NCBI RefSeq assembly: GCF_006716695.1
Contig: NZ_VFPN01000002.1
Span: 186,001 to 250,000, forward strand
DNA length: 64,000 nucleotides
Direction of reading: 5' to 3'
Origin: Klugiella xanthotipulae
Lineage (GTDB): Bacteria; Actinomycetota; Actinomycetes; Actinomycetales; Microbacteriaceae
Positions within the stretch are counted from its first letter, which is position 1. Every line of letters starts with the position of its first letter. This document shows, in pieces, positions 20,976 through 23,914 of the stretch. A program made the translations under genes and the position numbers. The notes under the pieces are model-generated. The model saw nothing but the letters and a program-made list of their open reading frames with translations. It searched no databases and was not told where the DNA came from.

Positions 20976-22787
20976 GTGGCACATCTACTCGGCGCAGAAA
21001 ACCTTCACCTCGAATACCCCACGAGGATCATCTTTGACGCCGTAACAATCGGGGTGAACGAGGGCGACCGCATCGGTATTGTGGGTCGCAACGGCGACGG
21101 TAAGTCCACCCTCCTCTCCCTTCTCTCGGGCCGTATCCAACCGGATGGCGGTCGCGTCACCGTGCGCGGCGGCGTCCGCATCGGGATGCTCGACCAGAGC
21201 GATGTCCTCGACCCCACCCTCACGGTGGGGCAGGCCATCGTCGGCGACACCGAGGAGTACATCTGGGCGGGTGACCCACTCATTCGCGATGTGATTGACG
21301 GTCTCATCCGCGACATTCCCTGGGACTCTGTGATCGGTTCCCTCTCCGGCGGCCAGCGCCGCCGTGTTGCCCTCGCCGCACTCCTCGTGGGTGATTGGGA
21401 CTGCGTTTTTCTTGATGAGCCCACCAACCACCTCGATGTGGAGGGCATCGCTTGGCTCGCCGAGCACCTCAAAAACCGTTGGGGTCGCACCTCGGGTGGG
21501 CTACTCGTTGTGACGCACGACCGGTGGTTCCTGGACGAGGTGTGTAACGCCACCTGGGAAGTACACGACCGCATTATCGAGCCCTTCGAGGGTGGCTACG
21601 CGGCCTATATCCTTCAGCGCGTCGAACGCGACCGGATGGCATCCGCCTCCGAGGCCAAGCGTCAAAACCTCATGCGCAAAGAGCTCGCCTGGCTGCGCCG
21701 CGGAGCCCCGGCCCGCACGGCAAAACCCAAGTTCCGCATTGATGCCGCCAACCAGCTGATCGAAAACGAACCCCCCGCACGCAACACAGTACAGCTCAGC
21801 CAGATGGCCACCTCCCGCCTCGGCAAAGACGTGGTAGACATCCTCGACGTGGGCGTATCCTACGGCGATAAGCAGGTGCTACGCGACGTCGAATGGCGCA
21901 TCGCGCCCGGTGAGCGCACGGGCATTCTGGGTGTGAACGGGGCAGGCAAGAGCACCCTGCTCGGCCTCATCACGGGGGAGGTCCAGCCCACCACGGGCCG
22001 CGTCAAGCACGGCAAGACCGTCAAGGTCGCAACTCTCAGTCAGGAACTCGCCGAACTCGTCGAGCACGCCAACGACCGGGTGAGTGATGTGGTGGCGCTC
22101 AAACGCACGAGCTACGTCACGGGCGGCAAAGAGATGACGCCCAGCCAACTACTCGAACGTCTCGGCTTCTCCAGTGCCCAGCTGCAAACCCCGGTGAAAG
22201 ACCTTTCGGGTGGCCAACGCCGTCGCCTTCAGTTGCTCCTCATCTTGCTTGACGAACCCAATGTGTTGGTGCTCGATGAGCCATCCAACGATCTGGACAC
22301 CGATATGCTGGCCGCGATGGAGGACCTGCTCGATTCCTGGCCGGGTACCCTCATCGTTGTCTCGCACGACCGCTACCTGATGGAGCGCGTCACCGACCAG
22401 CAATATGCCATCTTTGACGGCCAGCTGCGTCATCTACCCGGGGGTGTAGACCAGTACCTCGCGCTCCGCAAGCAGACAGAGGATGCCTCAACCGCCCCCT
22501 CCGCTTCCCTCGCAGCTTCCTCGTCCACCCCCGGCAACACAGTCCCCGCGCCCACTGGTTCCCTCGGTGGCGCGGAGAAACGTAACGCCGAGAAGGAACT
22601 CTCTGCGACCGAGCGGAAGATCGCCAAGCTGGGCGAGACCCTCACCGCCACCCAGCTACGCCTGGCTACGCACGACCAGGGCGACTATGCGGGCCTCAAC
22701 CTGATCATGCAGGAGACAACTGCGTTGGAGTCCACCATCGCCGAGTTGGAGGAGAGCTGGCTGGAGTTATCAGAGCTACTAGGCTAG
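20976..22787 (+). CDS. ABC-F family ATPase (Uup-like)
   Basis: A 603-residue soluble protein with two ABC cassettes and no membrane segments. Cassette 1 has Walker A GRNGDGKST, signature LSGGQRRRVAL and Walker B VFLDEPTNHLD. Cassette 2 has GVNGAGKST, LSGGQRRRLQL and LVLDEPSNDLD. A linker rich in charged residues separates them (RKELAWLRRGAPARTAKPK). The tail after residue 525 is Ala/Ser/Pro-rich, then a charged coiled coil (EKELSATERKIAKLGE), as in Uup. ABC-F proteins act on the ribosome; whether this is a housekeeping or antibiotic-protection type cannot be decided here. The GTG start looks leaderless. Confidence 0.9.
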   Translation: MAHLLGAENLHLEYPTRIIFDAVTIGVNEGDRIGIVGRNGDGKSTLLSLLSGRIQPDGGRVTVRGGVRIGMLDQSDVLDPTLTVGQAIVGDTEEYIWAGDPLIRDVIDGLIRDIPWDSVIGSLSGGQRRRVALAALLVGDWDCVFLDEPTNHLDVEGIAWLAEHLKNRWGRTSGGLLVVTHDRWFLDEVCNATWEVHDRIIEPFEGGYAAYILQRVERDRMASASEAKRQNLMRKELAWLRRGAPARTAKPKFRIDAANQLIENEPPARNTVQLSQMATSRLGKDVVDILDVGVSYGDKQVLRDVEWRIAPGERTGILGVNGAGKSTLLGLITGEVQPTTGRVKHGKTVKVATLSQELAELVEHANDRVSDVVALKRTSYVTGGKEMTPSQLLERLGFSSAQLQTPVKDLSGGQRRRLQLLLILLDEPNVLVLDEPSNDLDTDMLAAMEDLLDSWPGTLIVVSHDRYLMERVTDQQYAIFDGQLRHLPGGVDQYLALRKQTEDASTAPSASLAASSSTPGNTVPAPTGSLGGAEKRNAEKELSATERKIAKLGETLTATQLRLATHDQGDYAGLNLIMQETTALESTIAELEESWLELSELLG

Positions 22788-23088
22788 CCCAGTCCATCAC
22801 CCCACGGGCCTTCGGGGACACCGATCTGGATGCCCTTGCGGTCACGGGCCCCTCGTCTGATACAGCAACAAACACGAATCGGTCAGATATGTGCATCTTC
22901 TGACCCGCCGTTTCTTCCCCGGCAGCCCGCTACAACAAACGACTCAGGTAACTGGCTAACACCAGGCATCAAGTCTTCTCCCATTGACAGCAACAGATCC
23001 GGCAGGGTTGGGAAACAGTCTGAACGTGCGGGAACGTTGCGCACGCTCAAACTGTCCCTACCTCTCCCCTGCCCACGACATCGCTCAT
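22788..23088. other. Gene-free stretch between ABC-F and the Cys-rich peptide gene
   Basis: About 300 bases between converging genes. I find no convincing coding sequence. One minus-strand frame (22883-23119) is open for 78 codons but spans the hairpin at 23015-23055 and resembles nothing I know. The hairpin is the only clear element. Confidence 0.5.
23015..23055. terminator. Long imperfect hairpin, likely terminator
   Basis: Arms 23015-23030 and 23040-23055 pair at 14 of 16 positions (ACAGTCTGAACGTGCG against the complement of CGCACGCTCAAACTGT) with a 9-nt loop. It lies 34 nt past the stop of the Cys-rich peptide gene and 230 nt past ABC-F, so it most likely ends the ispE-dsbA-peptide transcript. 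Confidence 0.6.
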
Positions 23089-23241
23089 CTAAAGCGAGCA
23101 TGATCCCCCGCCGCAGCATCCGCCCTCGTTATCGTCCGACGGGTTCTGGTTCAACAGGGTGAGAAGCTGCGGTCTTGGCTCGATTCCTTCCTCAACCACG
23201 GCCACATCTGCAACCAGCATTTCGTGATTATCGTCTCTCAT
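23089..23241 (-). CDS. Small Cys-rich peptide coupled to a DsbA-family gene
   Basis: A 50-residue ORF whose ATG lies one base after the DsbA stop codon, with AGGA at the end of the dsbA gene as ribosome binding site. The N-terminal 33 residues are acidic and Cys-free (MRDDNHEMLVADVAVVEEG, then PQLLTLLNQNPSDDNE). The last ten or so are Gly/Cys-rich, with GGCCGGGSCSL ending the protein. The tight coupling, the sharp split between an acidic front and a Cys-rich end, and the hairpin after it argue for a real gene. It could be a metal- or thiol-handling peptide, or a precursor peptide: the front half loosely resembles FxLD-type leaders. I do not recognise a named family. Confidence 0.6.
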   Translation of the reverse strand: MRDDNHEMLVADVAVVEEGIEPRPQLLTLLNQNPSDDNEGGCCGGGSCSL

Positions 23242-23242
23242 A

Positions 23243-23914
23243 TCAATCCTGCTCCCCCACCTGGCCCGTACTAATCTGCTCAAGAACCCCCCGAAAGGCG
23301 GCGGACTCCTGTGCCCCCGAGACCCCGTATGCACTGTTAAAGACAAAGAACGGCACGCCATTGATACCATAGCCCCGCGCCTGATCAATATCCGCCTGCA
23401 CATCATCGGCGAACTCTCCGCCTTCTAGCGCGGCGCGTGCTGCCTCAGTATCGAGGCCAACATCGGCGGCCAGAGCGACAAGATCGTCGATGCGACCCAC
23501 GTGACGACCCTCCTCAAAATAGGCCCGCAGTAGGCGCTCCTTGAGCTCTCGCTGACGTCCTTGACTCTTCGCGAAGTGCAGCAGCTCGTGAGCTTTGAGC
23601 GTCTTGGTATGTTGCAACGCGTCAAAGTCGTAAGAAAGGCCAACGCTCGATGCGACCCCTGTCACGTGGTCGAGCATCTGCGTCACCCGCTCAGCCGACA
23701 TCCCTTTGTGCCCGGCCAGGAAATCGACCTCGGTCCCCTCAAAATCGGTCGGAGTGTCCGGAGCAAGCTCAAAGCTGTGATACTCAACCTCAACTGGGAC
23801 GCTCGCATCCGACGCCGCAAAGCCCGCCAGGGCCTCCTCAAACCGCCGCTTGCCGATGTAGCACCAGGGACACGCAATATCGGACCAAATATCAACCTTA
23901 ATCGTTTCTGCCAT
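23243..23914 (-). CDS. DsbA family oxidoreductase, FrnE-like
   Basis: A 223-residue thioredoxin-fold protein. MAETIKVDIWSDIACPWCYI places the CPWC active site at residues 15-18; the cis-proline loop is GINGVPFFVFN. The helical insertion contains RLLRAYFEEGRHVGRIDDLVALA, as in FrnE (polyketide biosynthesis-type) members. There is no signal peptide, so it is cytoplasmic. I chose the ATG at 23914; the frame stays open to a GTG at 23953, but that adds an unconserved stretch. It lies 62 bases behind ispE and is followed after one base by the Cys-rich peptide, a possible partner or substrate. Deinococcus FrnE is tied to metal and oxidative stress. Confidence 0.88.
   Translation of the reverse strand: MAETIKVDIWSDIACPWCYIGKRRFEEALAGFAASDASVPVEVEYHSFELAPDTPTDFEGTEVDFLAGHKGMSAERVTQMLDHVTGVASSVGLSYDFDALQHTKTLKAHELLHFAKSQGRQRELKERLLRAYFEEGRHVGRIDDLVALAADVGLDTEAARAALEGGEFADDVQADIDQARGYGINGVPFFVFNSAYGVSGAQESAAFRGVLEQISTGQVGEQD

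What the first reader, a model, noticed from the sequence alone, without database searches (positions are those of the whole stretch)
23089..23914. A 50-residue Cys-rich peptide translationally coupled to a FrnE-like DsbA protein
The ORF starts one base after the dsbA stop, has its own AGGA site and is followed by a 16-bp hairpin. Its acidic, Cys-free front and its end GGCCGGGSCSL differ sharply. A thiol oxidoreductase paired with a peptide whose only cysteines lie in a Gly-rich tail suggests a redox or metal-handling pair, or a precursor peptide. The segment MLVADVAVVEEG loosely resembles FxLD-type lanthipeptide leaders. No lanthipeptide or YcaO enzyme is in the window. I know of no description of this pair.
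Basis: partly seen in the sequence, partly recalled or inferred. Interest (0 to 1): 0.6.

Follow-up and report, generated by a model that had tools for sequence, protein, structure and literature searches.

The report
Detached redox tail of FrnE
The small cysteine-tailed peptide behind this disulfide enzyme looks like the enzyme's own redox tail made as a separate little protein, an arrangement found in many related bacteria and probably used to recharge the enzyme.

Summary
In detail: a 50-codon ORF starts one base after the stop of a FrnE-type dsbA, with an AGGA site and a strong hairpin behind it. It is not an orphan. FrnE of Deinococcus radiodurans has a C-terminal CX4C tail that, in crystals, lies at the CXXC site of another FrnE molecule and is proposed to regenerate it (PMC8945050). 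The window's FrnE lacks such a tail; the peptide ends in one (CGGGSC). Among 215 distinct actinomycete FrnE genes (not a random sample), 31 have the tail fused, 104 have it as a separate ORF just downstream (mostly ATGA overlap), 14 just upstream, and 66 have none nearby. In a Microbacterium-like genus, 36 of 59 genomes carry such a peptide elsewhere. A profile of separate peptides (window row included), searched against PDB sequences, hits the tails of SCO1869 and drFrnE first. My reading: a detached FrnE tail acting in trans as a thiol-disulfide partner. Homology is well supported for the family. For the window's divergent member it rests on gene position, CX4C spacing and relatives with the same CCGG variant. 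Docking and redox exchange in trans are inferred. The lanthipeptide reading is not supported.

The parts
23243..23914 (-). frnE-type dsbA, 223 aa, no Cys other than the CPWC active site
   Evidence: Pfam DSBA PF01323 132.7 bits; best PDB match drFrnE, E 4.7e-58
23861..23872 (-). codons of the CPWC active site (residues 15-18)
   Evidence: C15, P16 and C18 invariant in 58 aligned rows
23247..23250 (-). AGGA, likely ribosome-binding site of the peptide, inside the end of frnE
   Evidence: read
23089..23241 (-). 50-aa peptide gene, the detached FrnE tail
   Evidence: ORFs with the same tail in the same slot
23098..23115 (-). codons of the CX4C motif C43-GGGS-C48 (C42 at 23116-23118)
   Evidence: C43 and C48 fall in the invariant columns of A1 and A2
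23012..23058 (-). 19-bp hairpin behind the peptide, likely transcript end between convergent genes (role inferred)

Best explanation
The peptide is the CX4C redox tail of FrnE, encoded as a separate gene. SHOWN HERE: the FrnE of the window lacks the tail; the peptide stands where close relatives encode CX4C peptides; profiles of separate peptides and of fused tails recognise each other; such a tail occurs fused, just downstream, just upstream or unlinked. REPORTED BY OTHERS (passages of PMC8945050): in drFrnE crystals the tail of one molecule lies at the active site of another, Cys244-Cys22 can form a disulfide, and TrxR-coupled activity drops when the tail cysteines are changed. INFERRED: after termination at the frnE stop, ribosomes restart at the adjacent ATG and make the peptide beside its enzyme; its hydrophobic segment (LLTLL here) and CX4C dock at the FrnE active site; the peptide thiols resolve the C15-C18 disulfide and are then reduced by a cellular donor (thioredoxin/TrxR or mycothiol). 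Because it is free, the peptide could be shared or regulated apart from the enzyme.
For: (1) Literature on the fused tail: passages of PMC8945050; a Metabacillus FrnE also has CxxxxC near its end (PMC11164402 passages). (2) Profile A2 of 40 separate peptide cores, window included, against 177,635 PDB sequences: best hits SCO1869 residues 214-238 (E 0.0042) and drFrnE 225-247 (E 0.0049), next and last hit E 0.24. (3) A fused-tail HMM finds 31 of 71 separate peptides at E<=0.01 (58 at E<=10); the separate-peptide HMM, built without the window, finds 14 of 30 fused tails at E<=0.01 (29 at E<=10), Z=1000. (4) 215 distinct FrnE: 104 downstream, 31 fused, 14 upstream, 66 none nearby; start offset -4 (ATGA) in 80 of the 104. 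(5) The window's FrnE lies in a set of 10 rows, all scored downstream (SH-aLRT 96). (6) Differences by codon position 132/126/183 in 28 pairs, one-sided p 2e-4. (7) Peptide starts fall in all three frames relative to frnE (81/15/1 of 97), which argues for separate initiation. (8) Unlinked peptides in 36 of 59 genomes of a Microbacterium-like genus, while none of 54 main FrnE genes of that genus has a convincing linked one. (9) In two Streptomyces plasmids the coupled ORF carries the tail motif twice.
Against: No expression, binding or redox data for any separate peptide. The window's peptide is divergent: a direct search over 99 genomes finds only itself clearly (next best E 0.011, a copper-chaperone-like protein); profile A3 without it and profile A6 do not find it in its own genome (other places at E 2.54 and 0.31), although A3 also misses G046, whose CCGG row it contains; held-out scores are weak (12.4 bits, E 0.0073, and 9.8 bits, E 0.06; E 0.02). 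Outside the cysteines the family changes fast (195 nonsynonymous against 87 synonymous codon changes). 66 of 215 FrnE have no peptide nearby, so FrnE can work without one; tail-less NCgl2478 prefers mycothiol (PMC8280269 passages). In drFrnE the tail cysteines are not needed for insulin reduction with DTT, and FrnE of S. roseofulvus and D. maricopensis lack the motif. The CCGG form also occurs in copper-chaperone-like proteins.
Confidence: 0.68

Rival explanations
1. The peptide is mainly a metal-binding (Cu, Zn or Cd) small protein whose cysteines bind metal; FrnE keeps those cysteines reduced.
For: The GGCCGGG(S/A/C)C tail resembles N-terminal stretches of two CopZ-like proteins (L002 beside a CsoR-like ORF, L009); drFrnE is induced by cadmium (PMC8945050 passages).
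Against: 66 of the first 71 peptides have no cysteine beyond the pair, mostly as CEGDSC, CVDGVC or the like, as in the fused drFrnE tail, which is reported to act by thiol exchange; next to frnE only a minority has the CCGG form. Metal binding was not tested.
Confidence: 0.15
2. The peptide is a dedicated substrate or regulator of FrnE (for example a redox sensor oxidised by it) rather than its recycling partner.
For: Unlinked copies in the Microbacterium-like genus, 30 of 36 beside an MFS, DUF6328-like or AhpD-like gene, allow other partners.
Against: The corresponding segment is part of FrnE itself in 31 of 215 genes, and in drFrnE it is proposed to help regeneration.
Confidence: 0.12
3. Frameshifting or readthrough makes a FrnE-peptide fusion, as in the fused species.
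For: Close junction; the fused form exists elsewhere.
Against: The peptide lies in different frames in different species, has its own start codon, with an AGG-containing stretch upstream in 75 of 97, and can be upstream or unlinked.
Confidence: 0.03
4. Chance ORF, leader peptide or RiPP precursor.
For: Short, no family hit; fast-changing front.
Against: Conserved slot and cysteines, 96 of 215 against 10 of 948 controls. Behind the peptide, before the end of the convergent ABC-F-type ORF at 22787, one search lists only two same-strand ORFs of 78 and 63 aa, which I take for chance, so there is little to attenuate. No precursor family hit.
Confidence: 0.02

Closest known systems
drFrnE (DR_0659, PDB 5cnw and others), Deinococcus radiodurans
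   Same: DsbA-type enzyme with CXXC; its tail (residues 225-247) is matched by the peptide profile
   Different: the tail is part of drFrnE; here it is a separate 50-aa ORF with a CCGGGSC form
SCO1869 (PDB 3gl5), putative DsbA oxidoreductase
   Same: residues 214-238 of its 239 match the peptide profile; the enzyme part matches the window's FrnE, E 1e-42
   Different: fused
Rv2466c / NCgl2478, DsbA-type mycothiol-dependent reductases (PMC8280269, passages)
   Same: actinobacterial DsbA-type reductases with CP(W/F)C
   Different: no tail partner mentioned in the passages read; NCgl2478 reduced about 120 times faster through mycothiol/Mtr than through Trx/TrxR

Membership tests
FrnE-type DsbA (the enzyme) | DsbA-like thioredoxin domain | tested here: met
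   PF01323 132.7 bits against cut-off 25.6
FrnE-type DsbA (the enzyme) | CP(W/F)C active site and nearest solved relative FrnE | tested here: met
   CPWC; drFrnE E 4.7e-58, SCO1869 E 1e-42
FrnE-type DsbA (the enzyme) | CX4C tail on the same chain (many, not all, FrnE; PMC8945050) | tested here: not met
   the enzyme has no Cys after C18; the motif is in the next ORF
FrnE-type DsbA (the enzyme) | placement in CDD cd03024 | not tested
   CDD not on hand
FrnE CX4C tail (the peptide) | CX4C at or near the C-terminus after a hydrophobic segment | tested here: met
   RPQLLTLL...C-GGGS-C-SL; both Cys aligned with all 39 other rows of A2
FrnE CX4C tail (the peptide) | profile similarity of this member to tails, member held out | tested here: inconclusive
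   12.4 bits E 0.0073 with other peptides and 9.8 bits E 0.06 with fused tails (Z 1000), E 0.02, but not found genome-wide with A3 or A6
FrnE CX4C tail (the peptide) | gene position next to frnE as in the closest relatives | tested here: met
   L032, L033 and the set of 10 rows
FrnE CX4C tail (the peptide) | docks on CXXC and exchanges disulfides | not testable with these tools
FxLD-type lanthipeptide precursor | match to a curated precursor family | tested here: not met
   0 families at E<=1 in NCBIfam and Pfam; presence of an FxLD model in them is recalled
FxLD-type lanthipeptide precursor | modifying enzyme nearby | not tested

The most novel reading that the evidence does not exclude
Actinomycetes have turned a catalytic tail of a disulfide enzyme into a free, separately regulated redox shuttle of mostly 35-75 residues, whose gene can sit behind, before or far from its enzyme, may serve more than one partner, and has a CCGG variant that adds metal binding.
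Probability: 0.35. Interest if true: 0.78.

Novelty: new variant of a known kind. Interest (0 to 1): 0.62.

Why it matters
It gives a role and an immediate test to a widespread small-protein family with no match in NCBIfam or Pfam worth naming (8 members scanned, 7). It also makes an open point about FrnE directly testable: whether its tail works in trans, as the drFrnE crystals suggest, since nature has made it a separate molecule. One segment appearing fused, on either side and unlinked is a clear natural case of splitting a catalytic tail from its enzyme.

Tried and rejected
Direct search with the 50-aa peptide in 99 genomes: 31 have a match at E<=1, but only the window itself is clear; of the 30 loci returned, L005 (besides the window's own) has FrnE beside the match. 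Family libraries: nothing for the window's peptide or other members, save one unrelated weak hit at E 0.59. Attenuator or leader peptide and frameshift fusion: disfavoured as told under the rivals. Literature: seven searches listed no paper whose title or shown abstract describes a separate FrnE tail; I read passages of three papers only. Only open PubMed Central papers are held and the two primary drFrnE papers were not, so a description elsewhere is not excluded.

Rows dropped or set by hand before counts: window copies L001 and L141; L085 (reading frame broken); L162 (hit frame unclear; it has an upstream peptide); chance CX4C matches in L099, L116, L122, L208 and L215 were called NONE (L215 later found to have an upstream peptide); nine loci were set to downstream by eye (L048, L053, L061, L062, L113, L123, L128, L157, L192; in L061 and L062 the peptide lies further downstream); L247 (CX6C) was called fused; L229 and L222 (degenerate tails) were counted as none. 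The 215 come from 80 top-ranked named loci, the loci returned, and 80 stretches that I picked from their lists, so the counts are not prevalences. For the Microbacterium-like genus the 36 of 59 joins hits with ORFs read; weak hits without a fitting ORF were left out. Of the 36, 17 lie on the contig of frnE at least 375 kb from it, 18 on another contig, and in one (G327, 44% complete) no FrnE was found (places). Some FrnE loci lie near contig ends. The names MFS, DUF6328-like, AhpD-like, CsoR-like, CopZ-like, ABC-F-type and Microbacterium-like are my recognition or similarity to named loci, not library hits.

Full report
What is there. On the minus strand a FrnE-type dsbA (23914-23243) is followed after one base by a 50-codon ORF (23241-23089) with AGGA five bases before its ATG. 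A hairpin with a 19-bp stem follows (z -5.1), ahead of a convergent ABC-F-type ORF that ends at 22787 (name by recognition). The enzyme has a CPWC site and no other cysteine; the peptide has C42, C43 and C48. The enzyme's identity rests on Pfam DSBA and on drFrnE as the best solved relative, E 4.7e-58.

Relatives in the same slot. A direct search with the peptide in 99 genomes finds only itself clearly, so I searched with the enzyme and read the DNA on both sides. Downstream of many FrnE genes lies a short ORF, most often overlapping the stop as ATGA, ending in forms such as PFTMLG..A..CEGDSC.VP, CVDGVC or CGPDGC. The first 71 distinct peptides have a median of 48 residues (26-107), a variable front and, in 66 of 71, no cysteine outside the pair. 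They occur in Agromyces, Leifsonia, Frigoribacterium, Herbiconiux, Williamsia, Gordonia, Rhodococcus, Aeromicrobium, Curtobacterium and others (record titles, peptides).

What it corresponds to. A review (PMC8945050, passages read) reports that drFrnE has CXXC 22-25 and a C-terminal tail with CXXXXC 239-244. [quoted passage not shown] Not all FrnE have the tail. The primary papers were not held. A profile of 40 separate peptide cores (one of them the window's) finds such tails in the PDB: SCO1869 214-238 and drFrnE 225-247, E about 0.005 each, next hit E 0.24. Without the window row, the separate-peptide HMM finds 14 of 30 fused tails at E<=0.01, and a fused-tail HMM finds 31 of 71 separate peptides.

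Four arrangements. Among 215 distinct FrnE (hand-assembled, not random) 31 carry the tail fused, 104 have it downstream, 14 upstream (stop 1-51 bases before the FrnE match, e.g. LIVLG...CADGFCAL) and 66 have none nearby. States cluster on the FrnE tree, which needs at least 23 changes (shuffled mean 94.4; quick tree, 80 of 212 inner branches weak), so the tail has probably changed address more than once; the direction was not tested. In a Microbacterium-like genus, 57 of 59 genomes have a FrnE match. None of the 54 main FrnE genes has a convincing linked peptide (one flagged match, L319, looks like chance), yet 36 of 59 genomes have a stand-alone ORF of about 30-70 aa with the same kind of tail elsewhere. 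Two genomes of that genus (G315, G343) have as best match a distant FrnE with a fused tail, and no unlinked peptide was found in them. In two Streptomyces plasmid records the ORF behind FrnE holds the tail motif twice (one copy in L416 lacks its first Cys); in L416 it is annotated as a hypothetical protein.

Is the ORF real. A short ORF with CX4C starting near the stop was found behind 96 of 215 FrnE but behind 10 of 948 other long mechanical ORFs of these loci. In 28 disjoint pairs (532 codons, aligned on the motif, which favours its cysteines) differences fall 132/126/183 on codon positions (one-sided p 2e-4), though 195 of 282 changed codons are nonsynonymous, so the peptide evolves fast. 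The window-L032 pair alone (7/9/10) says nothing.

The window's own member. It is divergent: held-out scores are weak (12.4 and 9.8 bits; E 0.02), and profiles A3 and A6, which lack it, miss it genome-wide; A3 also misses G046, whose CCGG row it holds, so that failure says little about CCGG forms. The CCGG profile A7 finds it at E 2e-10 but contains it. Its assignment rests on three things: its FrnE sits in a set of 10 rows, all scored with a downstream peptide; its C43-GGGS-C48 spacing; and the recurrence of the CCGG variant near frnE (L005, L113, L138, L157, L192) and in the Microbacterium-like genus, where CSGGVC and CCGGSAC or CCGGGSC peptides stand beside the same kinds of neighbours. One of these, L377, ends GCCGGGSCSV against GCCGGGSCSL here.

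How it most likely works. Inferred: coupled restart of translation yields the peptide beside its enzyme; the hydrophobic segment and CX4C dock at the FrnE active site and resolve its disulfide; a cellular reductant then recharges the peptide. That such a gene can lie away from frnE argues that it acts as a free molecule, though that the unlinked peptides serve FrnE is not shown. Tail-less relatives such as NCgl2478 are reduced chiefly through mycothiol (PMC8280269 passages), so a peptide is not required for all such enzymes. Metal handling by the CCGG form is the main rival, since CopZ-like proteins in two relatives carry a similar stretch.

Novelty. The tail is known; I found no description of a separate gene for it in seven searches of open papers, of which I read passages of three papers (19, 61, 84). 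I file it as a new variant of a known kind.

Noticed in passing
L002 (reverse strand) and L009 (reverse strand): CopZ-like proteins with GMTCGHC carry an N-terminal GGCCGGG(C/A)C stretch like the window peptide's tail; in L002 beside a CsoR-like ORF.
   Followed up: partly
L416 1845-2042 and L417 just behind 1848: Streptomyces plasmid FrnE genes are followed by an ORF with two tandem copies of the tail motif.
   Followed up: partly
L374 (G343) and L375 (G315): Two genomes of the Microbacterium-like genus have a distant FrnE homologue with a fused CGPDGC tail as their best match, and no unlinked peptide was found in them.
   Followed up: partly
L411 (G068): A 34-aa ORF ending TGGCCGGSCGCGN found by the CCGG profile, context not read.
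   Followed up: no
L307 1306-1625: CX4C peptide ORF (ends 1587) upstream of frnE (starts 1625) in family f38, 37 bases apart; the like in other f38 genomes and some others.
   Followed up: yes
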